A stretch of 64,000 nt of DNA, from contig CACDOH010000002.1 in assembly GCA_902554325.1 (NCBI GenBank), positions 1 to 64,000 of the forward strand. The letters run 5' to 3'. Both the position numbers and the translations under genes were made by a program. This document shows, piece by piece, positions 4,075-54,008 of the stretch. Origin of the DNA: an uncultured Pelagibacteraceae bacterium. GTDB lineage: Bacteria > Pseudomonadota > Alphaproteobacteria > Pelagibacterales > AG-422-B15. Each line of letters begins with the position of its first letter. Within the stretch, counting starts at the first letter, position 1. Under the pieces are notes generated by a model that did not search any database, was not told the DNA's origin, and was given only the letters and a program-made list of their open reading frames with translations.

Positions 4075-5387
4075 AAATTGATAAAACATTGCAACTTCCT
4101 TGCGGTGTAGAGATAAAAAATAGATTTTTAAAATCTGCAATGACTGAAGGTATTGCAAATAGTGATGCATTATCAAACGAACGTCATGTAAAACTATATG
4201 AACGCTGGGCAAAAGGGGGTACAGGAATCTCAATTACTGGCAATGTACAAATAGACCATCGGTACATTGAGCGCGCTGGAAATGTTGTTATAGAAGGGAC
4301 ACAAACAAATGAAAGCTTAGCAGCTTTAGCAAATTGGTCTCAGGCTGGAAAACAGAACAATACCCAGTTATGGATGCAGCTCAGTCACGCAGGGCGTCAA
4401 ACCCCATTTTCTATCAATAAAAAATCAGTAGCACCTTCAGTCAAACCTATGCCGACTTTAGGTGGAGTTTTGAAGTTTGGGGTACCCGAGGAACTCTCAC
4501 ACACTCAAATTCTAGATATCATTGATCGATTTATTAACGCTGCTGAAATTGCAAAACAAACTGGTTTTACTGGCGTACAACTACATTCAGCGCATGGATA
4601 TTTATTATCAGAATTTTTGTCACCAAATATAAATAATAGAACTGATCAATGGGGTGGGAGTATAGAAAATAGGTCAAGATTGTTGATTAGTATTATTGAT
4701 GGGATCAGAACAAAAGTTGGAAATAGCTTTCCCATATCTATAAAATTAAATTCATCAGATTTTCAAAAAGGTGGTTTTACCCATGAGGAAAGTATTGAAG
4801 TTGCCAAACTACTTAATTTAACCTCATTGGATTTGCTTGAGATTTCTGGAGGTACATATGAAAATTTTGCAGCCTTGGAAATTGATTCTTTTAACCTAAA
4901 AAAAATGAAAACAATAAAACCTCAAAGAAGTACAGTTGTAAGAGAGGCTTATTTTTTTAAATATGCAGAGGAAATCAAAAAGTTTCTTTCAATTCCTCTT
5001 GCCGTAACCGGAGGTTTTCGCACTATTGATGGAATGAATAGCGCACTCAATAGTGGAGCCTGTGATGTTATAGGTCTTGGAAGACCTTTATGCTCCGAAC
5101 CTGAAATTATTAATGAATTGATAAGTGGAGAAAAAAAGTCAGCTACACTTTATGAGAATATTCTTCAATTTGGACCTTGGATATTTGGCCTTAACAGTCC
5201 GATTGCATTGATGAGGTCTAATAATAAAGCAGCTCAAGTATATTGGTGCTATCGACAAATTTTAAAAATGGCTAACGGTGAAGAAGTTAATAACAAGCTT
5301 AGTTTAACAAAAGCTTTATTTGATCATTTTAGAGAAGATTCAGCCAACAGTAAAAAATACCAAGAATATTGGAGTGATCTAAATTGA
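4071..5387 (+). CDS. NADH:flavin oxidoreductase / old yellow enzyme family
   Basis: TIM-barrel OYE motifs: HAGRQTP, GVQLHSAHGYLLSEFLSPNINNRTDQWGGSIENRSR. Confidence 0.9.
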   Translation: MKIDKTLQLPCGVEIKNRFLKSAMTEGIANSDALSNERHVKLYERWAKGGTGISITGNVQIDHRYIERAGNVVIEGTQTNESLAALANWSQAGKQNNTQLWMQLSHAGRQTPFSINKKSVAPSVKPMPTLGGVLKFGVPEELSHTQILDIIDRFINAAEIAKQTGFTGVQLHSAHGYLLSEFLSPNINNRTDQWGGSIENRSRLLISIIDGIRTKVGNSFPISIKLNSSDFQKGGFTHEESIEVAKLLNLTSLDLLEISGGTYENFAALEIDSFNLKKMKTIKPQRSTVVREAYFFKYAEEIKKFLSIPLAVTGGFRTIDGMNSALNSGACDVIGLGRPLCSEPEIINELISGEKKSATLYENILQFGPWIFGLNSPIALMRSNNKAAQVYWCYRQILKMANGEEVNNKLSLTKALFDHFREDSANSKKYQEYWSDLN

Positions 5388-6487: not shown

Positions 6488-8092
6488 ATGAGTAAGGTAT
6501 ATCATTTCATAGACAGCACATTTATAGACTTAGGAAGACAGTTTAAGCTTAGTTACTTGCCACCACTCATGATTTACTTAGCTGCTGGTGTTGCTGGATT
6601 AACAGGAATAGTTGGAACTTTTTTTGTCAAAGACTATCTCAACTTATCTGCCGCATTTCTTGCAGGCCTTGGTTTTTGGGCTGGAATTCCGTGGGCATTA
6701 AAAATGCCACTAGGTCATTTAGTTGATTTGATTTGGGAGCGAAAAAATTATCTTGTATATATAGGAGCTTCATTAATCGCCATAAGCCTAGGCATTATGT
6801 ATGGGCTAATTGCCCACACAGGGTTTATGTCACAATTCCTTAATATTGAAACCTGGTATGTGATCAGTGTATTGCTAGCACCAATTGGATATGTTGTGCA
6901 AGACGTCGTAGCTGATGCAATGACTGTTGAAGCTGTTCCAAGTTTAGATGAAGAAGGCAAACTTTATTCACCTGAGTTAATAAAAAATATGCATACCACA
7001 ATGCAAACTTTGGGAAGGTTTGCAATCATAGGAGGTACTGTTATTGTTGCTTTAATTAATGTAATCATTTTCAGTAGTGTTGAAGCTGAAACAGAGCAAG
7101 AAAAAATACTGTTATATGCAAATATTTATCTCTTTGCATTGATCATCCCTTTAATTTCAGTACTAGGCGTATTTCTCTCAATTTACCTAAGAAACAAAAG
7201 AAGAAATAAATTATCAAATGCTGGCGTTGAAGAGAAGATAGAGAGTGAGGAAACAAAAGTTGATTGGTGGATACTTGGGGGCTCACTTATTTTTGTCATA
7301 TTTACTCTTACTGTAGGTGGTTTCAATCTTCCTTATGCTCAAGAGATCGTTTTTGTAGGATCAGTAAGCATTATTTTCTTTTTGATGGCTAAGCTAATGC
7401 GAGAGTTGCCTGAATCAATGCGACTAACTATTTTAGGAACTGCAATAATAATATTTATTTTTAGAGCTATGCCAGGTCCTGGTGCAGGTTTGACTTGGTT
7501 TGAAATAGATAATTTAGGTTTTGATGAACAATTTTTTTCAGTCCTTTCTTTACTCGCTTCATTTCTAACATTACTGGGAATAATTGTTTTAAGACCGTTT
7601 ATGGTAAATAACTCGATAGCAAAAATTATTGTAATTTTATCTATTGCTGGGGCAGTTTTATTTTTGCCAAGTGTTGGTATGTATTATGGATTTCATCAGT
7701 GGACAGCTTCCTTAACAAATGATGTAGTTGATGCGCGTTTCATAGCTATCTTTAATACTGCGCTTGAGTCACCTTTGGGGCAAGTATCGATGATACCATT
7801 GCTTGCTTGGATTGCGAGAAATGCGCCCGCTCATCTTAAAGCAACATTTTTTGCTGTATTTGCCTCTTTTACTAATCTTGCTCTATCCGCAAGTTCATTG
7901 TTTACAAAATACCTCAATCAAATTTATGAAGTCACCAGGGAAGTAAAGGATAAAATTACAAATGAAATTCTTTCAGTTGCAGATTACTCTGAATTGGGCA
8001 TTTTACTTATTGTGATAACACTACTCACCCTTTTGGTCCCAATATTTTCTGTTATAATTATTCAGAGAACAAGATTGAAAACAAATGAGTAA
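6488..8092 (+). CDS. MFS-type membrane transporter, possibly folate/biopterin transporter-like
   Basis: About 12 hydrophobic segments; FWAGIPWALKMPLGHLVDL motif. Confidence 0.7.
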   Translation: MSKVYHFIDSTFIDLGRQFKLSYLPPLMIYLAAGVAGLTGIVGTFFVKDYLNLSAAFLAGLGFWAGIPWALKMPLGHLVDLIWERKNYLVYIGASLIAISLGIMYGLIAHTGFMSQFLNIETWYVISVLLAPIGYVVQDVVADAMTVEAVPSLDEEGKLYSPELIKNMHTTMQTLGRFAIIGGTVIVALINVIIFSSVEAETEQEKILLYANIYLFALIIPLISVLGVFLSIYLRNKRRNKLSNAGVEEKIESEETKVDWWILGGSLIFVIFTLTVGGFNLPYAQEIVFVGSVSIIFFLMAKLMRELPESMRLTILGTAIIIFIFRAMPGPGAGLTWFEIDNLGFDEQFFSVLSLLASFLTLLGIIVLRPFMVNNSIAKIIVILSIAGAVLFLPSVGMYYGFHQWTASLTNDVVDARFIAIFNTALESPLGQVSMIPLLAWIARNAPAHLKATFFAVFASFTNLALSASSLFTKYLNQIYEVTREVKDKITNEILSVADYSELGILLIVITLLTLLVPIFSVIIIQRTRLKTNE

Positions 8093-11072: not shown

Positions 11073-11861
11073 ATGAGCTTAACCGACGAAGGACACTACG
11101 GTCCCAAACAATTGAATATGCTTAAAACCATCTGGGGTGAAGGATTTTTATCACCAGGGGGCACTGATGAAATTGATCAAATTTTAAAAGGATTAGACTT
11201 AAAAGGCAAAAAAGTTTTGGACATTGGCTGCGGTACAGGAGGAGCAGTTTTTCATATGATAGAAAAATATGGTGCTAATGAAGCAATTGGAATAGATCCA
11301 GAACCATTAGTGATCGAAACTGCAAATGATTTAGCTATAAAGAAAGGCATATCTAATAAAGTGAAATTTATATGTACTAAGCCTGGTGAACATAATTTTG
11401 AAGATAAAAGCTTTCAGGTTGTTTTTAGCAAGGAAGCCTTTTTACATATTGTTGACAAAAAAAAATTACTCCAAGAGATAAATGATATCTTAGTTGATGA
11501 TGGAATTCTTTCTGTGGGAGACTGGATGAGGAATGATGATAATGAGCCATCAGAGCAGATGAAGGAGTATATTGCAGCGGAAGGTCTAGATATGTTCATG
11601 TGCTCACTCGAGAAGTATGAAAGTCTTTTAAAAGAAACAGGATTTAAAGTTCTAACACTAAATGATCGTAACAAATGGTACTTAGAAAAAGTTAAGACAG
11701 AAATATCAGATATAAAAGGCCCCCTTTATGATGAGGTGACAAGGCTAATCGGAAAAGAAGAAGCAGATGGAGCGCTTGAGATTTGGGAAAAATTACTTGG
11801 TGTAGTTGAAAAAGGAGAACATCGCCCTGGCAATTTTCAAGCCATAAAGATATCAAACTAA
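11073..11861 (+). CDS. SAM-dependent methyltransferase (phosphoethanolamine N-methyltransferase-like)
   Basis: GEGFLSPGGTDEIDQIL...VLDIGCGTGGAVFHM. Confidence 0.75.
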   Translation: MSLTDEGHYGPKQLNMLKTIWGEGFLSPGGTDEIDQILKGLDLKGKKVLDIGCGTGGAVFHMIEKYGANEAIGIDPEPLVIETANDLAIKKGISNKVKFICTKPGEHNFEDKSFQVVFSKEAFLHIVDKKKLLQEINDILVDDGILSVGDWMRNDDNEPSEQMKEYIAAEGLDMFMCSLEKYESLLKETGFKVLTLNDRNKWYLEKVKTEISDIKGPLYDEVTRLIGKEEADGALEIWEKLLGVVEKGEHRPGNFQAIKISN

Positions 11862-43793: not shown

Positions 43794-43807
43794 CTTTCTA
43801 CTTAATA

Positions 43808-43823
43808 AGTGGGAGACTTCTGT
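43808..43823 (+). repeat. att direct repeat, left (AGTGGGAGACTTCTGT)
   Basis: Identical to 53673-53688. Confidence 0.88.
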
Positions 43824-43871
43824 GTCTCGTTTCACTAGTGAATATATTACCATATCTCAAAAATAAGTCGA

Positions 43872-43891
43872 AGTGCGAAGTAGTGCGAAGT
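43872..43891 (+). repeat. arm-type repeat pair, left: AGTGCGAAGT x2 in perfect tandem
   Basis: Direct reading; same 10-mer recurs three times inside the right end. Confidence 0.85.
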
Positions 43892-44003
43892 TTTAGATCA
43901 AATCTTGAATAAAAAGTACTTATGTTTCAGTCGGCAAATCGACTAGGAACATCATTTTAGAGATAAAAATAGCGATTGAGTGTACTGATATCAAATTGCC
44001 CAA

Positions 44004-44025
44004 AATTGCCCTATATGGGGCAATT
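44004..44025 (-). terminator. possible terminator hairpin AATTGCCC-tatatg-GGGCAATT
   Basis: 8-bp perfect stem at the 3' end of the minus-strand gene 44024-44833. Confidence 0.5.
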
Positions 44026-44833
44026 ATGGATTTTCGATTCTCTTGATTTTAGGGAATGAACCTCTACCCAGATTGATCAAAAGTAGTTTTGCGAATTGTT
44101 TATCTCTTTGCGTCTTTTTGATCTCAGATAGATAATCAGACCTTATCGTTCCAGTCGTTCTACTTCCAAGACCACCTTTTGCATTTTCTCTTTCAATTTT
44201 AGGTATTTCAAATCTCTTTGACATTATCTTTTGTACTTGAAAATGTAATTGAAGATTATCATAGTCAGTAGTCAGACTTAATCTGAATGTATGAAATATC
44301 CGTTTCATCAAATTATCATCAACTTGATCTAGTATTATTCTTGCACTCTTTCTTGGTTTACTTTTCTTCTCTTTTTCTGTGTACCAAGTCCTAATGTCAT
44401 CAAGAATACTTCGTATTGGGTAATCATCTGGAATATGAATAAAACTACCTCCATTTAAATTATCAGCCATCTCAGACAGGGTCGGTGAAAAGGTTGTAGA
44501 TGGTTCAATAAAGTGAGGTCTATATCTATCGAAAAATGCATTATTGAATTTGTTAATGTCTCTTGGCAAATTCTTGATATCTGGTCGTATGAATTTAGGT
44601 GATTTCGGTATCTGTTTTGTATTGATTAAATTCCACCATTGATGATTTGAAAATCCTAATTTGAATTTCTTTTGTCTGACCTCAACCGATTGACCCTCTA
44701 ATTCTTTGAGTACTTTACACCACACCGCAAACCAACGATAGACAGGTCGATCAACTGATATTCTGCTGAAGTCCTCTTTTCTCAACCTTCGTTGTTCAGG
44801 TGTTCTAACTGATATTCTTCTTTTCACAGACAT
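44024..44833 (-). CDS. hypothetical protein, element-encoded
   Basis: 269-aa ORF, basic N-terminus; no family recognised. Confidence 0.65.
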   Translation of the reverse strand: MSVKRRISVRTPEQRRLRKEDFSRISVDRPVYRWFAVWCKVLKELEGQSVEVRQKKFKLGFSNHQWWNLINTKQIPKSPKFIRPDIKNLPRDINKFNNAFFDRYRPHFIEPSTTFSPTLSEMADNLNGGSFIHIPDDYPIRSILDDIRTWYTEKEKKSKPRKSARIILDQVDDNLMKRIFHTFRLSLTTDYDNLQLHFQVQKIMSKRFEIPKIERENAKGGLGSRTTGTIRSDYLSEIKKTQRDKQFAKLLLINLGRGSFPKIKRIENP

Positions 44834-44850
44834 TGATGTCTCATTTTATA

Positions 44851-44880
44851 CATTATTTTGTGTATCACAATAGTGTTAAC
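44851..44880 (+). promoter_or_regulatory. shared promoter/operator motif copy 1: CATTATTTTGTGTATCACAATAGTGTTAAC
   Basis: 26/28 identical to the reverse complement of 53523-53550; between divergent genes at 44833 and 44928. Confidence 0.65.
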
Positions 44881-44927
44881 AATACCTTGCTGTGTGTTAC
44901 CACCTAAAACTCCCATAAAATAGAGAT

Positions 44928-45365
44928 ATGAAAAAAGCAAAGATGAAAGATTTCGATACGATTTGGTCGGAATTTAAGAAAAATAGAGATGTCTTTCCTC
45001 ATATCAGAACGGACTATCTCAAAAGGCAAATCAAAAACAATAATGTGATCTATTACGAGGGAGTAATTCTCATATTCGGTGAATACAAGAGAAGAGGTAC
45101 TTTGGGTGATTTTCAATACAATAAAGGTGATCTTATTATTCATCAAATCTTGAACTCTCGAAAGGGTAATGGAAATGCAAGAATAATAATGAATAGATTT
45201 ATTACAGCCAACGACACTCAAAGTCGGTCAATAATTCTGAGTGTTAGATCAGCAAATACACGAGCAAGAAGATTCTACGAGAAAATGGGAATGTCGGTTG
45301 TTGGAAATATCTCTTGGTCTAAAGGTACGATTGGAGGTAAGATTTATGGATATGAAATCGAATAA
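44928..45365 (+). CDS. GNAT-fold N-acetyltransferase
   Basis: Acetyl-CoA loop-like RKGNGNARIIMNRF and C-terminal SVRSANTRARRFYEKMGMSVVG. Confidence 0.85.
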   Translation: MKKAKMKDFDTIWSEFKKNRDVFPHIRTDYLKRQIKNNNVIYYEGVILIFGEYKRRGTLGDFQYNKGDLIIHQILNSRKGNGNARIIMNRFITANDTQSRSIILSVRSANTRARRFYEKMGMSVVGNISWSKGTIGGKIYGYEIE

Positions 45366-46128
45366 AGTAGAAATAACTAAAATCATAGAGGCAGACGCAA
45401 AAGGTCTTTACTCAACAAGTATGATGAAAATGCCGACTACTGTTAAAGGGTTCAAACAAGTAGTTATGCAGAACTTTAAACTTGCAGATGGTTTTGAAAA
45501 ATTATCTGGTGTTGGTTTCTATGAAATTGGAAAAGCACTTCTCAAGGCAAAAGAAGAACTTAAACACGATTTCGGTAATCTAAAGAAAGAACTTGCAAAA
45601 GAAGGTCTGCACGAAAAGAAACAAGAGAGATATATGATGGTTGCAAATAGTGATGTTGTAAAAGATTACTATAATAAATTACCACCTGAATTTACTACTT
45701 GGTTAAAGTTAACTCAACTTCAGAACAAGATGATCAGTCAAAATAAAAGTGATCAATTTGATGATAGTATGAAACAACTAATCAACCCAAAGATGGTCTG
45801 GAAAGATGTTTCAGATCATTTCAAACTTAATGTACCTAGTACTAAAAAAAGGAGAGATCATTATGAGACTCATTACATATCAGTCGACTGGTCTAAAAAG
45901 GTACATAAAAAGGATAAGAAATTAGTAATGCAACTTGAAAAGGACTTAAAACAATTATTAAAGAAATATAAATTTGCAACATTGAAAAGAACAACAAATG
46001 CAAGTGGTGGATATGTTTATGATCAAGTCATTGACTTTGTAAAAGATAAAGTCTTGGAAGATGATACTGTTTCTACTACCAAGAAAGTTAAGAGACCAAC
46101 CTATTCAAATAAAAAACGATCGTATTGA
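45346..46128 (+). CDS. DUF3102-like protein
   Basis: FYEIGKALLKAKEELKHDFGNLKKELAKEGLHEKKQERYMMVANS resembles the DUF3102 helix pattern; start trimmed to ATG 45346 overlapping the GNAT stop. Confidence 0.6.
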   Translation: MDMKSNKVEITKIIEADAKGLYSTSMMKMPTTVKGFKQVVMQNFKLADGFEKLSGVGFYEIGKALLKAKEELKHDFGNLKKELAKEGLHEKKQERYMMVANSDVVKDYYNKLPPEFTTWLKLTQLQNKMISQNKSDQFDDSMKQLINPKMVWKDVSDHFKLNVPSTKKRRDHYETHYISVDWSKKVHKKDKKLVMQLEKDLKQLLKKYKFATLKRTTNASGGYVYDQVIDFVKDKVLEDDTVSTTKKVKRPTYSNKKRSY

Positions 46129-46338
46129 GCCGTGCAGGGGTAAAGTCGACCGACTTCTGACACTAATTTTATACTCGAAAAAAAATTTGAGATAAATTCT
46201 ACCAATACCTTTTGAGTTGTATTGTATCTAAAAGATTACTTATGGAATGTTTTCAGTTTAAAGGGGGGGGGTACTTACATATTACTCACATTGAAAGTCC
46301 GTATCCTCGTGTATCCTCCGTACAAGAAATCCTCAATT

Positions 46339-47058
46339 TTAGATCAATCCGACCTGTTTATATCTATTCTTTAAATCTTTATCAGATACTGATTTGTCTG
46401 GTCGTTCCCATTCTCTCATTCGTTTTCTTACCCATTTAACTTCTGGTTTGAAATATAAGTTAATATGTTTGTGTTGAAATTGGACTATCTCTTCTCGAAG
46501 TATCAATTGGTAATCAGTAGGTAATAATTTAGTTAACTTCTTTCTCTCAAGAACATATCTGAATTTTCTACTAACTTTCCCCAGGGGGATTATCTTCTTA
46601 ACACCATCATCAATCCAATAATTCCAGTAATGATTTTGAAATCTTAATTCTGAATTACGACTATCACCCATCAGATTGACTGTTTTGAACTTCGTCAACT
46701 TTTGTGTTTGTAATAAATGATCGTGAGTGAATTTAAGATTTGCAATTATCTTACCACCAGTAAAGTCTTTGATGTCTCTCTTTTGTGGTGTGACTATCTG
46801 ATCAATAGTCGTTTTCGGTTTGTCAGAATCTATTTTCGCAGCCCCAGAAAGGAAGGTCTCTAGATTGGGAATAGGGAAATCAAACTTAATCGGTTTATCT
46901 AATTTGAATGTGATTAACAAATCTCTCTTCGGATTGATGTAATATTGATTTTCACCTTTAGTGAATTTGAATTGTACAACCTTTGCATAATTTGCCTCTG
47001 CACAATGCACAATACCCCATAATATCTCTTTAATATAATCTGATACTTCGTACTTCAT
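46339..47058 (-). CDS. hypothetical protein coupled to the methyltransferase gene
   Basis: 239-aa ORF; start overlaps the 47055-48104 stop by 4 bp. Confidence 0.7.
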   Translation of the reverse strand: MKYEVSDYIKEILWGIVHCAEANYAKVVQFKFTKGENQYYINPKRDLLITFKLDKPIKFDFPIPNLETFLSGAAKIDSDKPKTTIDQIVTPQKRDIKDFTGGKIIANLKFTHDHLLQTQKLTKFKTVNLMGDSRNSELRFQNHYWNYWIDDGVKKIIPLGKVSRKFRYVLERKKLTKLLPTDYQLILREEIVQFQHKHINLYFKPEVKWVRKRMREWERPDKSVSDKDLKNRYKQVGLI

Positions 47059-48104
47059 TTCTTAAATATAAAGATTGGTTCTACTTTTGAATCTGCTTGT
47101 TGTGATGATAACTTGTAATAGAAAGTATCTACTAATTTGAACCCAACTTCTTTTGCAAGATCAACTGTATCATCTTCAAAAGTCTCATAAACATTTCTTA
47201 CATTTGCAACATTTAACGCACAGAATTTATTTGGTTTAAGACCATAGTACATATTCTGAATTGTCTTTTTGAGAAACTTTTGTTTCCAATCTGTAAGTTT
47301 TGAAAACTTTAAATAAGATTGTGTACTTTCATTCGAGTACTTTTCGGTGTCAAAATAGGGTGGACTTGTAAATGCAAAATCTAATGAATTCTTATCTGGT
47401 CGATATTCTTCACTCCCCATTGTCAATAATTCGTGATTTCTAGCCGATGACTTGAATGTCTGTGACATCTCTTTAAGACCTTTCATTGTCTGTTTGTTTG
47501 GGTCAGTACCAATGTAATTAACATCTGCCTTTATACTTGCGAGTAAACGACCACCCCAACCACAACTCATATCCCAAACTGTATCTCCTTTATCACAAAA
47601 TACTTTGTACAACATTGATGCAGTAATCGGTCTGAAGTTAGAGACCATTTGTGAACCAGTGACTCTTCTTAAAATGCCCCTGATCTTTTCTTTATTCGTA
47701 TTTGATTGAGTCATTAAATCTTCCCAATTATCTTCCTTTGCAAAGAATACACCCTTAATCTTCTTCCGTATTCCGTTAGAGAACATCTCTTTACTTTTGA
47801 AAACATCATAGGGTGAAGTTGAGTCTTTGCATTGTACTTTAAATGCGTGAGGGTGATATGACCACGCAAGAGTTAAACCTCCCTTATGAAATGTGAAAAG
47901 TCTATTTGCAAAGTCTAATGACTTTCTATCATCTACTTTCAAGAATTCTTTAAACTTTTGATCTCTAAATTTCTTATCGGTTGGGTAATATGGAAACTTG
48001 TTCTTTTGCCAGTACTTTACAATCTTGTCGGTTCTCTTATCAATGATTACTTCATTAGTAATAGACTTGTTCTTAATATTACCTCTACTTGTTAATAAAC
48101 TCAT
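47055..48104 (-). CDS. DNA methyltransferase-like protein (N4C/N6A amino-MTase type)
   Basis: Motif I-like DTVWDMSCGWGGRLLAS and catalytic TSPPYFDTEKY. Confidence 0.8.
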   Translation of the reverse strand: MSLLTSRGNIKNKSITNEVIIDKRTDKIVKYWQKNKFPYYPTDKKFRDQKFKEFLKVDDRKSLDFANRLFTFHKGGLTLAWSYHPHAFKVQCKDSTSPYDVFKSKEMFSNGIRKKIKGVFFAKEDNWEDLMTQSNTNKEKIRGILRRVTGSQMVSNFRPITASMLYKVFCDKGDTVWDMSCGWGGRLLASIKADVNYIGTDPNKQTMKGLKEMSQTFKSSARNHELLTMGSEEYRPDKNSLDFAFTSPPYFDTEKYSNESTQSYLKFSKLTDWKQKFLKKTIQNMYYGLKPNKFCALNVANVRNVYETFEDDTVDLAKEVGFKLVDTFYYKLSSQQADSKVEPIFIFKK

Positions 48105-48130
48105 AATCAGCCGTCAGACACTGGTGTCGG

Positions 48131-48358
48131 TTATTCCATAAATGCATCTAGACCGTGTTGTTGGTCTATGATCTCTTTTACATTGGTGTTTATATAAATC
48201 TGATTTTGTATCCATTCTAACTTTGTATCGTACAAGGGTGTATCTTGCCCCTGCATCTTCAAATTCTCTAACATAAAGGTTAGATAGATGACTTTCTGTT
48301 CTGGTGTTTTGGTAGTCATTTCTCTAATCATTTTTCTTTTACTCGGTACTTCGATCAT
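48131..48358 (-). CDS. small hypothetical protein (75 aa)
   Basis: Start trimmed to ATG 48358, preceded by AAAGGAG RBS on the minus strand. Confidence 0.65.
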   Translation of the reverse strand: MIEVPSKRKMIREMTTKTPEQKVIYLTFMLENLKMQGQDTPLYDTKLEWIQNQIYINTNVKEIIDQQHGLDAFME

Positions 48359-48465
48359 TTTATCTCCTTTACTTAATAGGTATCTAACCAATTTATCAAC
48401 GAACCTACAAGGTCTATTTTAACACACAATAGTTCACTATCAATCGCACTTCACTGCCTCTGATC

Positions 48466-48533
48466 GTGATACACAAAATTTATCGTCTCGTATCACGGAT
48501 ATTTAAAATTTGAGGGTAGGTGTGATACACAAA
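48466..48533 (-). promoter_or_regulatory. shared operator motif copies 2 and 3 (GTGATACACAAA at 48466 and 48522) plus opposite half-site at 48490
   Basis: Lies in the divergent intergenic region between 48358(-) and 48617(+). Confidence 0.6.
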
Positions 48534-48616
48534 GTTGGAATAACGCTTTTGGCATTTTGGTAACTCTTTAAAATGTAGTAGTCGCATTTGCAACCTCTAC
48601 AAGAAAGGAGAAAACT

Positions 48617-49294
48617 ATGAAAACTCTAGGTTATTTAAGAGTAAGTCATCTTGAGTCTTTAAATGGTACAAGTTTAGAGACACAAGAGAAAAGAATAAAA
48701 AACTACTGCGAATTGCAAGAATTCAGTCTTGATGATGTAGTTCAAGAAGTCGTTTCAGGGGCAACTGAATTCAGAAAAAGAACAGCCCTAAAAGAGAAAG
48801 TCGATAAGATGAAACGAGGTGATCGTCTAGTCGTATCAAGATTAGATAGATTATCCAGATCAACTTTGCATACACTTCAATTTGTTAACGAATGTAAATT
48901 AAAAGGAATTGAAATTCATATAACTGATCTTGGTTGTGTGACTAATGGTGGTGTTGGTCAGATCGTCTTTAATGTCTTATCTTGTCTTGCAGAGACAGAA
49001 CGAATTAATATCTCAGAAAGAATAAAGGCAAGTAAACATTTCGCAAAGAAAGAACGAAAGTATCTTGGTGGTGCATTAGAGTTCGGTTATTCAAAAGATG
49101 ATAACGGTAAACTAATCCCAAATGAAAAAGAATTCGTCATTTTACAATCAATGATGAATTTAAGAACGCAGGGGTTAGGGTATAGAAAAATTGCCGAAGA
49201 AATACTAAAGAAGTTCGGTAGAAAAATACACTACACCCAAGTTCATAAAATCATCAATCGTGAACACAATCAAACATTGTTGGAGGTTGCATAA
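48617..49294 (+). CDS. serine recombinase / resolvase family protein
   Basis: YLRVS, SGATEFRKRTALKEKVDKMKRGDRLVVSRLDRLSRS, LAETERINISERI; GAAAGGAG RBS. Confidence 0.93.
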   Translation: MKTLGYLRVSHLESLNGTSLETQEKRIKNYCELQEFSLDDVVQEVVSGATEFRKRTALKEKVDKMKRGDRLVVSRLDRLSRSTLHTLQFVNECKLKGIEIHITDLGCVTNGGVGQIVFNVLSCLAETERINISERIKASKHFAKKERKYLGGALEFGYSKDDNGKLIPNEKEFVILQSMMNLRTQGLGYRKIAEEILKKFGRKIHYTQVHKIINREHNQTLLEVA

Positions 49295-49536
49295 TGTACA
49301 TCTGTTCTAACTGTAATATCGAATTAACCAAAGAAGACCTTGATGCGTGTGAAGTGGTTTCAATCGGTAAACTTTATTGTCAAGATTGTTTACTCAATAA
49401 GGAAAGAGAAATCTTCGTAGATGATAAAGGTCTCTTAACTCACACTTGGGATAAGTACGAAAAGTTTGTACTTGAGTGTTGGAAGAAGAGAATAATGGAA
49501 GATGATTTGAGGTATCTAGATGAATACATTGTCTAG
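49294..49536 (+). CDS. small zinc-ribbon-like protein
   Basis: CSNC...CQDC spacing. Confidence 0.65.
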   Translation: MYICSNCNIELTKEDLDACEVVSIGKLYCQDCLLNKEREIFVDDKGLLTHTWDKYEKFVLECWKKRIMEDDLRYLDEYIV

Positions 49537-49768
49537 AGTATTCGTCATCTTATTGTTAACGACATCAATGTCTTTTGCCGAAGGTAAATGTACTTACAAC
49601 ACAACAACTATCATTGAGAACGGACAAGTTATCTCAAAGAAAGAAATCAAAGTTTGTGATGAAGTACAGCCGATCGGGTCAGAGTCGTTCTTAACCAAAG
49701 AAGAGAAAATGCAAATGTTTGAAACAGGATTGATTCTTACATTTCTTTTCATCTTAGAAAATATGTAG
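49520..49768 (+). CDS. small exported protein
   Basis: Signal peptide MNTLSRVFVILLLTTSMSFAEG and C-terminal hydrophobic helix. Confidence 0.6.
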   Translation: MNTLSRVFVILLLTTSMSFAEGKCTYNTTTIIENGQVISKKEIKVCDEVQPIGSESFLTKEEKMQMFETGLILTFLFILENM

Positions 49769-49781
49769 AAAGGAGGTGAAT

Positions 49782-50222
49782 ATGAAAAATATAATAATAG
49801 TGTCTTGTTTATTATTTCTCGTTGGTTGTTCTCAAACGAAAATGGTCAAAGATGAAGTAATACAGTTGAAAGGAAACAATCAATTACTACAGGTCAATTA
49901 TGAAATATGTAATGACTATAAATCTAACTCTGCAAAAGTTTATGGTTGTTCTAGTTCATTCAGTAAAGACCTAGAGATATCTAAATCTAAGTCATTACTT
50001 AATGCGAAGTCTGAAGTAATTGATACCTACAATTCCTCATTCAACCAATCCCAAACAATGTTAAGTCAAGATAACAAGAAAGGTATTGTCCTTGATTATG
50101 ATAATAAAATTGTAAATCAGATTAGTGATACAGTTTTGAATTATAAAGTCGAGTACTCTAAAACATTTCAAGAGGCAAATGGTTTTAGAACATTTACTGT
50201 TATCTCAATGGACTTGATCTAA
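49782..50222 (+). CDS. lipoprotein of unknown function
   Basis: MKNIIIVSCLLFLVGCSQ lipobox; start trimmed from 49776; AGGAGGTG RBS. Confidence 0.75.
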   Translation: MKNIIIVSCLLFLVGCSQTKMVKDEVIQLKGNNQLLQVNYEICNDYKSNSAKVYGCSSSFSKDLEISKSKSLLNAKSEVIDTYNSSFNQSQTMLSQDNKKGIVLDYDNKIVNQISDTVLNYKVEYSKTFQEANGFRTFTVISMDLI

Positions 50223-50225
50223 AAA

Positions 50226-50276
50226 AAAGAACCCATAAGATAGGAAGAGGGTCTCTCAAAGTCTTATGGGTTCTTT
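50226..50276. terminator. strong hairpin: 15-bp perfect stem AAAGAACCCATAAGA...TCTTATGGGTTCTTT
   Basis: Perfect inverted repeat with 21-nt loop immediately after the lipoprotein stop. Confidence 0.8.
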
Positions 50277-50331
50277 ATACGAAACTTCACAGACAAGAAG
50301 TTAATCTGCAAATTGATATAGTTATTAATAT

Positions 50332-50487
50332 TTATGCGTGTCGTCTTAAATCTTCACTAATGAGTTGTTGTATTCTGGTAGATAGAGGTATTCCATAAAA
50401 CTTTGTTTGTCTTAATTCGTTATACCTCTCTAGTGTTATTGGATCGAGAGTGATCATATGTCTTTTCTTTTTAGGTGTGTGTTGCAT
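50332..50487 (-). CDS. 51-aa putative ribbon-helix-helix regulator, not in ORF track
   Basis: MQHTPKKKRHMITLDPITLERYNELRQTKFYGIPLSTRIQQLISEDLRRHA*; RBS AAGGAT upstream. Confidence 0.6.
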   Translation of the reverse strand: MQHTPKKKRHMITLDPITLERYNELRQTKFYGIPLSTRIQQLISEDLRRHA

Positions 50488-50523
50488 TAATTATCCTTTT
50501 CAGCCGTGCAGGGGCAAAGTCGG

Positions 50524-50823
50524 TTAAAATTGTCGTTTGTTTTTATTATCAATGTGTCTGTTTCTCGATTTGTAAAGGTTCGTATTTAAATTCTTTGTTG
50601 CGTGTCTTACTTCATCACTACTATTGAGTACTTGTCTATTAGTGTCATATTCAGATGTCCTAATTACTTTTGATTTTGTACCTATGTATTTGTCATATAA
50701 TCCAAATTGATTAGTTGGTTGTCTCATCACCATATCTGTACCAATATTTCTGGTACTCTTTTGATTTTCTTTTTGTTGTTTTAGATGTCTTGCTTTCATC
50801 GAATAATGGAATGCGTCATTCAT
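50524..50823 (-). CDS. hypothetical protein
   Basis: 99-aa ORF, 4-bp overlap with the upstream small ORF. Confidence 0.5.
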   Translation of the reverse strand: MNDAFHYSMKARHLKQQKENQKSTRNIGTDMVMRQPTNQFGLYDKYIGTKSKVIRTSEYDTNRQVLNSSDEVRHATKNLNTNLYKSRNRHIDNKNKRQF

Positions 50824-50936
50824 AATAGTTTCCTTATCTCTTCTAGTATTAAGAAAATCTGATCTAGTTTCTCTTGTGTACTTAATTTTCTTTTTGCTTC
50901 GGTTATCTTTTGTTTAATCTTATCTTTTGAATTCAT
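50820..50936 (-). CDS. 38-aa small protein
   Basis: MNSKDKIKQKITEAKRKLSTQEKLDQIFLILEEIRKLL*; 4-bp overlap with 50823. Confidence 0.4.
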   Translation of the reverse strand: MNSKDKIKQKITEAKRKLSTQEKLDQIFLILEEIRKLL

Positions 50937-51082
50937 ACTAATATTTATCTTTCTCAGCCGTTCTAGTGACTGTCGGTGTGTGGTTAGTTTCGTAAGACGA
51001 TTGAACACTTCGTGTTCAAGTATCTGTTGTTGGTTATCAGGTAGGATACCTTTACCCCTACCTTATCTCTTGCGGATTATCT

Positions 51083-51138
51083 GGAGGTGGACTTCCCCTC
51101 CAATCGAACTAACGATTTTGGGAGGGGAAACCACTTCC
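51083..51138. other. long imperfect hairpin in an ORF-poor region (possible structured RNA or DNA site)
   Basis: GGAGGTGG/CCACTTCC, TTCCCCTCC/GGAGGGGAA and AATCG/CGATT stack around an AACTAA loop. Confidence 0.7.
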
Positions 51139-51594
51139 GAGAGAACCCAAATTATTCATTCCGAATATTTGCTTTGCGTCTTTACCTAGTCGGTGGTCTA
51201 AGAAATCAACTCTTACGAGGTTGTGGGGCAAACTGATCCACAATTACTTTACTTCCATTGTCTGCGACTGCATTACTCAACACTTTCTTAGATTCTGTTG
51301 TGCAGATGATGACCTATTGTTTTTCTATAAAAGTATTTCAACAATTACTCTAAAAACAACGAGGGGTGTCATTTCTATTCATCAAACTTTACTTCGTTTT
51401 TACAAGTTTAAGTTATTCTACTTCTTGAAGATAGCGGTGATCGTGTAATGTCGATCAAATATTTCCTCCTATATTCCGATATAATTCTATCTTTAATTCA
51501 CTCGGATATGTGTTTTACAAGGTATTTAAATAATCAAATTTAAATGTTGTATTAGTATATATAAGGATAGAGTCTTCTACGGGTGGAATAATTA

Positions 51595-52842
51595 CTATTT
51601 TCTGGATTTAACTTTGTTAATTCGTTTTGCATAGTATTTCTCGTATTCTTCAATCACATTATCGTCATCAGTATCGTGGTCATAGTGTTTTGCGATCATA
51701 TCAGGTGATGTATTGAATTTCTTTGCGACTACATCTACTAAATTACCGTCACTCAAGTCTCTTTTTGTTTGAAGGTGTCGTATTGAAGTCATTGGTCTAC
51801 TCTTACCATTGAAGTAATATACATTAACTTCTTTTGCGACTCGCACAAATGCGTCTTGCACCCAGTTATTGATCTGATTGCGATCTCTTTTGTCATCTTT
51901 AAAAAAGAAATAGTCTTTTGGGGAGTAGGTTTGAAATCTATCTCGCACATAATCACCATATTTTGTCATAAAATACGGGTCGGTTTGATAACTGAATTCT
52001 TTTTGCGTCTTTGTCGTTCCAACTAAGACTTTGATAAATTCGATATCGTCTTTTGTGTATAATAATTTCATTTGATCAGCCCGAAGAGACACAGTCTCTG
52101 AACCATATCGAGTGGTTGAAGATATTATGAACTGTAAATAGACATATAATTCTAAGTACATTGGGTCATTATTGAGTTCATATATCTTTAATACTCTATT
52201 TGTTATCTTTTGAAGATCAGTCATTCGATATGCTGGTCGTGCATTACTTCTTCTATCAACTGGTGGATTCTTAATTGTTAAGTTTAACAATCCATCTGCA
52301 ACACCTTGTTTGCAAATTAATTGAATGATGTTCAAGTACTTTGTGATTGTACTACCTTTAAGTACTTTACCATCTTCATTACCTCTTGTTGTCCATCTAT
52401 CGACTAATTCATCAACAGACTTTTGAATCAGGTCTCTATCGTTCATCGGTACATTACCAAGAAAAGGTTTGATCTCTTTTCTGTATCTTCTTAATTCAGA
52501 TATACCTGTGTTTCTGATTTTCATTCCTCTATCAATCTCTTTCATTCTGTTCTTGAGTTTGTAGTGGTGAATTCTTTGATCAAATGCTTTTTCAGCCGTA
52601 TCATTGAAAGTCTGTGAAGTTCTCTTGATATCGTACTTATCAAAATCAAATGACTTCCAGAGTCTAATTGCCTCTTTCTTACCCTCTGTTTTAGAAGTAA
52701 TAGGTTTTAACGACTTACGAAATAACCCATTAGAACTATAAGAAGGTGATACATAGAAAGAAACTTGGATATATTTACTTCGTTCTTGTTTGTAAATCTT
52801 GAGACTACCACCAAGTTTCTTTTGCCAGATTGTTTTACTCAT
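51595..52842 (-). CDS. tyrosine recombinase / phage-type integrase
   Basis: TTRYGSETVSLRADQM (Arg I), SIRHLQTKRDL (R-H box), AKHYDH catalytic Tyr; near the att site. Confidence 0.88.
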   Translation of the reverse strand: MSKTIWQKKLGGSLKIYKQERSKYIQVSFYVSPSYSSNGLFRKSLKPITSKTEGKKEAIRLWKSFDFDKYDIKRTSQTFNDTAEKAFDQRIHHYKLKNRMKEIDRGMKIRNTGISELRRYRKEIKPFLGNVPMNDRDLIQKSVDELVDRWTTRGNEDGKVLKGSTITKYLNIIQLICKQGVADGLLNLTIKNPPVDRRSNARPAYRMTDLQKITNRVLKIYELNNDPMYLELYVYLQFIISSTTRYGSETVSLRADQMKLLYTKDDIEFIKVLVGTTKTQKEFSYQTDPYFMTKYGDYVRDRFQTYSPKDYFFFKDDKRDRNQINNWVQDAFVRVAKEVNVYYFNGKSRPMTSIRHLQTKRDLSDGNLVDVVAKKFNTSPDMIAKHYDHDTDDDNVIEEYEKYYAKRINKVKSRK

Positions 52843-53452
52843 ATATTTCGCCTCTTAAAAATGCGTCTATGACTAAATGAATTCTTTCTTCATCACCATT
52901 TACGACTGAATGAGGTGTAGTCACATCAACTGCATATAGATGGTTCTCTTTCATATTAATTGAAACTTCTTTATCACCATAGACAGTCATTATTGCGTCT
53001 GGGTTGGTTTTAATCGGTATATGAAATCTTCTTAGTGGACAATCTTTTATCAGAAAATCTTTATCAACTTTATCGGTATGTTTCTTTATGACTGCATTAG
53101 GTTTTACTTTTAGTAATCTAACTCTATCAAGATCACAAAAGAATTGTCGTTTAAAATTTTCAACGATACTTGTTATTGATCTTAAGATATTCATTTCATA
53201 AATGAATGTTGGTCTAGTCTGATTATTAGTTTCAGAATTATTACCTAAGACTTTTGGTTTAGATAAATCATTTGGGTCGTCACTATAACCTATTAATGAT
53301 AATCCTAACCAGTCACCAGACTTACAACATTTCGTAGTCACATTTGACCACTCTGGTTCTTGTAAATACTTCAATGATAATCTGTGATTAGATTTATAAT
53401 GGCCGAAAGACATCAGTGTCGGTGCATATTCTATCGTTTCGTGTGTAAACAT
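52835..53452 (-). CDS. aspartyl/asparaginyl beta-hydroxylase-like 2OG-Fe(II) oxygenase
   Basis: HTDK...RRFHIPIKTNPDAIMTVYGDKEVSINMKENHLYAVDVTTPHSVVNGDEERIHLVID; start trimmed to 53452; 8-bp overlap with integrase start. Confidence 0.75.
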   Translation of the reverse strand: MFTHETIEYAPTLMSFGHYKSNHRLSLKYLQEPEWSNVTTKCCKSGDWLGLSLIGYSDDPNDLSKPKVLGNNSETNNQTRPTFIYEMNILRSITSIVENFKRQFFCDLDRVRLLKVKPNAVIKKHTDKVDKDFLIKDCPLRRFHIPIKTNPDAIMTVYGDKEVSINMKENHLYAVDVTTPHSVVNGDEERIHLVIDAFLRGEIYE

Positions 53453-53522
53453 ATTACTCTCTTTCTTTTTGTTATAGGTAAAGGATACACGATTTTGAAT
53501 GGGTAGCACGATCATCATTAAT

Positions 53523-53553
53523 GTTAACAGTATCGTGATACACAAAATAAATG
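53523..53553 (-). promoter_or_regulatory. shared promoter/operator motif copy 4: GTTAACAGTATCGTGATACACAAAATAAATG
   Basis: 26/28 match to reverse complement of copy 1; upstream of the 53452 gene. Confidence 0.65.
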
Positions 53554-53568
53554 GTCATTTGAAGCAAA

Positions 53569-53619
53569 AGTGCGAAGTCTTTTGAAGGGGTCAAAAAAGT
53601 GCGAAGTGAAGTGCGAAGT
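53569..53619 (+). repeat. arm-type repeats, right: AGTGCGAAGT at 53569, 53598 and 53610
   Basis: Direct reading; plus a degenerate AGTGTGAATC near 53628. Confidence 0.85.
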
Positions 53620-53672
53620 GATTCTGAAGTGTGAATCTGATGAATTTGAGATGAGATACTAATTCTGAAATT

Positions 53673-53688
53673 AGTGGGAGACTTCTGT
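53673..53688 (+). repeat. att direct repeat, right (AGTGGGAGACTTCTGT), the 3' end of ssrA
   Basis: Identical to 43808-43823. Confidence 0.88.
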
Positions 53689-53907
53689 TGCCCGGTGCCT
53701 CCCGAACCGCGCTTGCCTAATTGTATTAAGCAGCGAGCGCTAATTTATTGTTAGCATTTAAAAGTTAGCCCGATAACGGCGGTACAATGCCGAGAGAAAA
53801 ACTTACCTTTAAACATTCGTCGATCCTATATCACCCCCTAAAATTGGTGGAGGTGCCGGGTACCGCCCCCGGGTCCGTAATGGGTATTACGTAAGCCGTT
53901 TATCTCT
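53674..53907 (-). ncRNA. ssrA: circularly permuted (two-piece, alphaproteobacterial type) tmRNA
   Basis: Minus strand: acceptor piece ...CCGGGGGCGGTACCCGGCACCTCCACCA, 6-nt spacer, coding piece GGGGGTG...; 7-bp acceptor stem GGGGGTG/CACCTCC; tag ORF GCTAACAATAAATTAGCGCTCGCTGCTTAA = ANNKLALAA* at 53755-53726; 5' limit approximate. Confidence 0.92.
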
Positions 53908-54008
53908 ATAGCTAGGATATCCCCAGCAATCTGAATATAGTTTGATATTGGATCTTTTTAAAGAGGCTATTCTTATTATAATATGCCATTATTATTTGAT
54001 TCACAAAA

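What the first reader, a model, noticed from the sequence alone, without database searches (positions are those of the whole stretch)
44851..53553. Element-wide regulon signal: TTTTGTGTATCAC upstream of three operons
Seen: four copies at 44851-44880, 48466-48478, 48522-48533 and 53523-53553. Copies 1 and 4 match over 28 bp (26/28: TTATTTTGTGTATCACNATANTGTTAAC). Read as TTTGTGTATCAC, every copy points toward the next gene: GNAT/DUF3102-like (44928+), 48358/MTase/46339 (-, two copies), and hydroxylase/integrase (53452-). GTATCGTGATAC-like dyads suggest operator character. Inference: one regulator coordinates modification, integration and cargo genes, as in a prophage-like switch.
Basis: partly seen in the sequence, partly recalled or inferred. 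Interest (0 to 1): 0.85.

Follow-up and report, generated by a model that had tools for sequence, protein, structure and literature searches.

The report
Repeated operator of an integrated island
A 9.9-kb mobile island inserted at a bacterial tmRNA gene carries four copies of a short DNA sequence, found nowhere else in the assembled genome, in front of its gene clusters; it looks like the binding site of the island's own master regulator, and sibling islands use different sequences for what appears to be the same job.

Summary
TTTGTGTATCAC occurs exactly four times in the 1.17-Mb assembly. All four copies lie in non-coding gaps of one integrated island (43804-53688, at a tmRNA gene). No shuffled island gave an equally complex 12-mer four times (0/1500). 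Copies 1 and 4 match at 26 of 28 positions.

The inference of an element-specific regulon is supported but unproven. Seven relatives of the island were found; their shared core is a tyrosine integrase, a small serine recombinase and an orphan '44024' protein. Several carry their own repeated intergenic sequence: TTTCCATTTRGAAA in three, GACAAMTAAG dyads in two. This operator type follows the subclade of the 44024-type protein, not of the serine recombinase or integrase. That makes 44024 (copy 1 overlaps its predicted promoter) the best candidate regulator. The small RHH-like protein is less likely. The sign of control, the regulator's fold and its binding are unshown.

The island is not a prophage: no structural genes were found. 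It resembles a phage satellite; siblings carry a T4-type gp45 clamp or a short gp44 clamp-loader-like protein, which hints at T4-like helper phages.

The parts
44853..44884 (+). Motif copy 1 (TTATTTTGTGTATCACAATAGTGTTAACAATA), in the divergent gap between 44024 (-) and the GNAT gene (+)
   Evidence: Exact 13-mer; inverted partner of copy 4, 32 nt at 91%; overlaps predicted -35/-10 elements of 44024 on the - strand (44879-44852 and 44870-44843)
48466..48478 (-). Motif copy 2, upstream of 48131/MTase/46339 (-) and also of the serine recombinase (+)
   Evidence: Exact 13-mer; a predicted promoter TTGATA-16-TAAAAT lies just downstream at 48443-48416 (-)
48490..48496 (-). Further GTGATAC half-site, inverted relative to copies 2 and 3
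48522..48534 (-). Motif copy 3 (one mismatch in the 13-mer, exact 12-mer)
53519..53550 (-). Motif copy 4, upstream of the hydroxylase-integrase operon; carries the only perfect GTATCNNGATAC dyad
   Evidence: Exact 13-mer
44024..44833 (-). Orphan 269-aa protein, best candidate regulator; family member present in all eight islands
   Evidence: Homologues in seven siblings; no Pfam, NCBIfam or PDB family
48617..49294 (+). Small serine recombinase
   Evidence: Pfam Resolvase 7.7e-29
48131..48358 (-). 75-aa protein of unknown function, first gene of the leftward operon
   Evidence: No family
47055..48104 (-). DNA methyltransferase
   Evidence: phrog_12517 1.2e-21; 33% to a Vibrio phage N4-cytosine methylase
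46339..47058 (-). Weakly sliding-clamp-like protein
   Evidence: phrog_223 4.9e-5; no phage hit by tblastn
44928..45365 (+). GNAT-type acetyltransferase
   Evidence: Acetyltransf_10 8.4e-5, just below the curated cut-off
45340..46128 (+). Protein in the family of sibling genes L012:10811, L029:11869, L032:8997, L013:10665
   Evidence: Weak pairwise matches; in the joint profile
50332..50487 (-).
   Evidence: No family hit; 38% to L032:5980-6132
51595..52842 (-). Divergent tyrosine integrase
   Evidence: Aligns with sibling integrases, R..RH..Y residues conserved; G183 homologue hits phrog_1 and Phage_integrase
52835..53452 (-). Asp/Arg beta-hydroxylase-type protein
   Evidence: PF05118 2.5e-10
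43804..43823 (+). Left att repeat
   Evidence: 20-nt direct repeat, 95%, with 53669-53688
53669..53688 (+). Right att repeat, within the 3' end of the tmRNA gene
53673..53966 (-). tmRNA gene (alpha type, permuted), the integration site
   Evidence: RF01849 1e-67; ARAGORN
43871..43891 (+). Probable integrase arm sites, left (AGTGCGAAGT x2)
53568..53619 (+). Probable integrase arm sites, right (AGTGCGAAGT x3)

Best explanation
The motif is the operator set of one island-encoded DNA-binding regulator that controls the whole island, and the best candidate regulator is the orphan 44024 protein. Copy 1 sits inside the predicted promoter of 44024 itself (autoregulation). Copies 2 and 3 plus a third half-site fill the divergent region between the serine recombinase and the 48131/MTase/clamp-like operon. 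Copy 4 precedes the hydroxylase-integrase operon. Most likely the regulator keeps the integrated island quiet and releases recombination, modification and cargo genes together, plausibly when a helper phage infects. Shown: the motif, its uniqueness in the assembly, its non-coding positions, and parallel operator-like sets in siblings that follow the 44024-type subclades. Inferred: that it is a protein-binding operator, that 44024 binds it, repression rather than activation, and the helper-phage trigger.
For: The 12-mer occurs only in the island, never by chance four times in shuffles, always in non-coding DNA. Copy 1 overlaps predicted -35/-10 elements of 44024. The 44024 family is present in all eight islands, with the integrase and the serine recombinase; the 45340 family was not found in three of them. 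Operator type follows 44024-type subclades: G183, G233 and G010 (42-46% identical) share TTTCCATTTRGAAA, with 7 of the 8 exact copies in six searched genomes inside the islands and none in G000, G125 or G349; G125 and G349 (42%) share GACAAMTAAG dyads, including directly upstream of the 44024-type gene. Serine recombinase and integrase similarities group the islands differently.
Against: No binding, expression or structural evidence. 44024 has no recognisable DNA-binding domain, and its AlphaFold model from one sequence is unusable (pLDDT 36). The co-variation rests on two groups and could reflect co-inheritance of neighbouring DNA. The island with the closest 44024 homologue, G222 (30%), shows no window-like motif and no clear repeat. 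Copy 2 lies upstream of a good predicted promoter, a position as fitting for an activator.
Confidence: 0.45

Rival explanations
1. The motif is the operator of another island protein: the 51-aa RHH-like protein (50332-50487), the 75-aa 48131 product or the 45340 protein. The regulon idea stays, the binder changes.
For: RHH proteins are classical operator binders; the RHH-like protein of G010 has diverged (38%) and G010 lacks the window motif, so a change of specificity is possible. 48131 is the first gene beside copies 2 and 3. 45340-family proteins also group G183, G233 and G010 weakly.
Against: The RHH-like protein was found only in the window and G010, yet G010's operator type is shared by G183 and G233. 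The 45340 family was not detected in G349, G222 or G550, although G349 shares its operator type with G125. No homologue of 48131 was detected in the sibling islands.
Confidence: 0.2
2. The copies are sites of the island's small serine recombinase: inverted sites (copies 1 and 4) for inversion of most of the island, and a res-like or autoregulatory cluster (copies 2, 3 and the third half-site) beside its own gene.
For: Copies 1 and 4 are inverted and match over 32 nt at 91%; three half-sites lie next to the recombinase gene; copy 4 has a 2-bp-centred dyad; the protein matches Resolvase and invertase families.
Against: The closest recombinases, in G233 (66%) and G550 (56%), lie in islands without the window motif, while G010, G349 and G222, with 68-78% identical recombinases, do not share one repeated motif. 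Copies 2 and 3 lack the second half of the dyad.
Confidence: 0.15
3. The motif is a promoter or activator element read by a factor of a helper phage (for example a phage RNA polymerase or middle-gene activator), so the island is switched on in trans on infection.
For: Read as TTTGTGTATCAC, all four copies point to a gene; copy 2 lies just upstream of a good predicted promoter. Siblings carry T4-type replication parts, a hint at a T4-like helper.
Against: Distances from motif to candidate -10 elements differ (about 44, 49 and 58 bp, counted by hand). Sibling islands use unrelated sequences. A 35-nt query found only three chance-level phage matches (E = 4). The IMG/VR scan could not be run.
Confidence: 0.13
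4. The copies have no regulatory role: remnants of a small dispersed repeat, or iteron-like replication sites.
For: No functional evidence exists; G010's repeat also occurs in a gap between convergent genes.
Against: Non-coding, promoter-proximal positions in three separate gaps and parallel sets in siblings; not clustered as iterons usually are.
Confidence: 0.07

Closest known systems
SaPI/PICI Stl master-repressor circuits (PMC6695447, PMC4936726, PMC9638917; abstracts read)
   Same: An integrated island with an element-wide switch, operators at a divergent promoter region, and (in SaPIs) release by helper-phage proteins
   Different: 44024 has no detectable similarity to a known repressor family; operators here are spread over three regions; derepression and a helper are not shown
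tmRNA-integrated islands such as I55 in Pseudomonas (PMC12595487, abstract read)
   Same: Integration at tmRNA, flanking direct repeats, tyrosine integrase, no autonomous transfer genes
   Different: Other hosts and cargo; shared gene families beyond the integrase type were not tested; those islands carry defence systems and I55 moves with jumbo phages
PLE satellites of Vibrio cholerae (PMC7145576, abstract read; further details from own knowledge)
   Same: A satellite-like island without structural genes; PLE parasitises a lytic phage, and siblings here carry phage replication parts
   Different: PLE integrates with a large serine recombinase (own knowledge); here a tyrosine integrase is the integrase and the serine recombinase is small
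Prophage immunity switches (lambda-type)
   Same: Three half-sites within a divergent region resemble a multi-operator switch
   Different: No structural genes, and no HTH repressor recognised

Membership tests
Integrative island / phage satellite (general) | Site-specific integrase with flanking att repeats at a tRNA or tmRNA gene | tested here: met
Integrative island / phage satellite (general) | No capsid, tail or terminase genes of its own | tested here: met
   No such Pfam or PHROG match at a convincing score; one PHROG head-protein hit to the lipoprotein is weak (2e-3)
Integrative island / phage satellite (general) | Mobilised by a helper phage | not testable with these tools
   Only indirect: T4-type clamp and clamp-loader genes in siblings
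PICI/SaPI | Stl-type HTH repressor at divergent operators | tested here: inconclusive
   Divergent operator-like sites present, but no HTH repressor recognised
PLE | Large serine recombinase as integrase | tested here: not met
   Tyrosine-type integrase; the serine recombinase is 225 aa
Prophage | Structural and lysis genes | tested here: not met
Operator of an element-wide regulator | Repeated site restricted to the element and located upstream of several operons | tested here: met
Operator of an element-wide regulator | Specific binding by an element-encoded protein | not testable with these tools
   Needs biochemistry

The most novel reading that the evidence does not exclude
The 44024-like orphan proteins are a new class of master regulator of a family of small islands in streamlined alphaproteobacteria. 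Regulator and operator sequence change together between siblings, as immunity groups do in phages, while the islands also carry pieces of a T4-type replisome (gp45 clamp, short gp44-like loader) that may sense or sabotage a T4-like helper phage.
Probability: 0.25. Interest if true: 0.75.

Novelty: new variant of a known kind. Interest (0 to 1): 0.5.

Why it matters
If right, it gives a testable regulator-operator pair for what appears to be an unnamed family of islands in small-genome alphaproteobacteria, and operator types would predict which islands can regulate each other in one cell. The clamp and clamp-loader pieces give a first hint at the helper phage and at how the islands might interfere with its replication.

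Tried and rejected
RHH-like protein as the binder: disfavoured by its distribution. Serine recombinase sites: disfavoured by comparison with G233 and G550. Host global regulator: no exact copy elsewhere in the assembly. Integrase arm sites: these are a different repeat, AGTGCGAAGT x5. The 24-bp form of the motif was not found in the 43 other genomes of the genus searched. A 35-nt query against phages gave chance matches only. Searches for more siblings with 44024-type alignments gave only one partial new contig. Scans of viral contigs failed every time; genome-contig scans found no relative. The TTTCCATTTRGAAA copy at G183:C20 lies inside a coding frame and is taken as chance.

Full report
1. 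The observation. The 12-mer TTTGTGTATCAC occurs four times in the 1.17-Mb assembly, all in this island; the two other places where the 13-mer occurs with one mismatch do not contain it. In 1500 shuffles that keep dinucleotides, no complex 12-mer reached four copies. All four copies are non-coding, though only about 16% of the island is. Copies 1 and 4 agree at 26 of 28 positions. The dyad GTATC-NN-GATAC is perfect only in copy 4. A further GTGATAC, inverted, lies at 48490-48496 between copies 2 and 3. The assembly is 79% complete, so absence elsewhere is not absolute.

2. The island. A 20-nt direct repeat (43804-43823 and 53669-53688) bounds 9.9 kb next to an alpha-type, permuted tmRNA gene (53673-53966 -) that neighbours thyX. 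The island encodes a divergent tyrosine integrase, a small serine recombinase, a DNA methyltransferase, a GNAT-type enzyme, an Asp/Arg hydroxylase-type protein and several orphans. No convincing structural phage gene was found. A separate five-copy repeat, AGTGCGAAGT, lies at both ends and is probably the set of integrase arm sites; siblings have their own versions (TCAACGAAGT in G183, CTACGAAGTT in G550, GGTACATAGT in G349).

3. Relatives. All have an integrase, a small serine recombinase and a protein of the 44024 family. G183, G349 and G550 lie at the tmRNA gene too. In six of the seven (not G550) the 44024-type gene is next to and divergent from the recombinase gene. In the window it is at the left end but has a motif copy directly upstream. 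A more distant 44024-like protein lies in an integrase-bearing locus of G071.

4. Equivalent repeats in siblings. G010 has TTTCCATTTGGAAA four times, G233 has TTTCCATTTAGAAA twice, and G183 has one exact and one near copy. A search of six whole genomes found exact TTTCCATTTRGAAA eight times, all in these three genomes and seven of them in the islands; the eighth is inside a coding frame. G125 and G349 have GACAAMTAAG exactly three and two times, in gaps and with an inverted partner, including directly upstream of the 44024-type gene. G550 has its own tandem dyad beside the recombinase gene. G222 has no clear repeat.

5. Which protein follows the operator type? The 44024-type proteins of G183, G233 and G010 are 42-46% identical to each other, those of G125 and G349 42%, and across the two groups 26-33%. 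The serine recombinases group differently: window, G233 and G550 together, the rest together. G010's integrase is an outlier. So the genes have been reassorted, and the operator type goes with the 44024-type protein. The 45340-family proteins show a weak tendency the same way but were not found in three islands. This is the main argument for 44024 as the regulator. It rests on two groups and is circumstantial.

6. Mechanism. Copy 1 overlaps predicted promoter elements of 44024, which suggests autoregulation by repression. Copy 2 lies upstream of a good predicted promoter of the 48131/MTase operon, a position that would also suit an activator. The sign therefore remains open; repression is favoured because recombination genes of an integrated island are expected to be kept silent (established knowledge of phages and satellites). 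The promoter scan as a whole found fewer sites than shuffles do (28 against 43.9), so these predictions are weak. The trigger is unknown.

7. Helper phage. G183's island encodes a gp45-type sliding clamp (phrog_223 1.5e-41; PDB 1b77 and 1czd). G550's encodes a 209-aa clamp-loader-like protein that matches about the first two thirds of phrog_168 (3.2e-53). Both find T4-like phages, many of them cyanophages, at 28-40% identity. The window's 46339 product is only weakly clamp-like (phrog_223 4.9e-5) and has no phage hit by tblastn. This suggests, but does not show, T4-like helpers.

8. Verdict. The motif is real and element-specific. Biochemistry or transcription data are needed to go further.

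Noticed in passing
L012:11637-12377 and L041:13376-14005: Sibling islands encode a T4 gp45-type sliding clamp and a short (209 aa) gp44-type clamp-loader-like protein just before the integrase gene; the same position in G125 holds other genes, including a DruA-like one nearby.
   Followed up: partly
window 50940-51594; L032:4740-5660: About 650 bp of non-coding DNA; its end near 50979-51025 is almost identical to G010 over some 55 nt, including the hairpin TTGAACAC..GTGTTCAA, while the rest has diverged. Possibly a structured RNA or a packaging or replication site; no Rfam family at gathering score.
   Followed up: partly
window 43871-43891 and 53568-53619: AGTGCGAAGT repeats near both att sites, five in all, with counterparts of different sequence in siblings; probable integrase arm sites.
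   Followed up: partly
L012:4574-4601 and 4722-4749: 28-nt repeat (93%) containing TTTATAAATA, which resembles the T4 late promoter TATAAATA (resemblance from own knowledge); upstream of the 4877 operon in G183.
   Followed up: no
L033:4683-5216 and L012:5684-6157: Proteins with motifs reminiscent of HUH replication initiators (Rep_1 weak hit for the second).
   Followed up: no
window 46119-46148 and 50493-50522: 30-nt direct repeat (87%) containing GCCGTGCAGGGG, in two spots of the island; unexplained.
   Followed up: no
L013:8977-10083: DruA-like protein (PF14236 1.1e-8) as cargo in the G125 island.
   Followed up: no
L012 9134-9151, L030 about 11686-11703, L032 about 7945-7962: ACGCTNACANGGAACC-like sequence shared upstream of the serine recombinase in three siblings with similar recombinases; a possible recombinase site or promoter element.
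   Followed up: no
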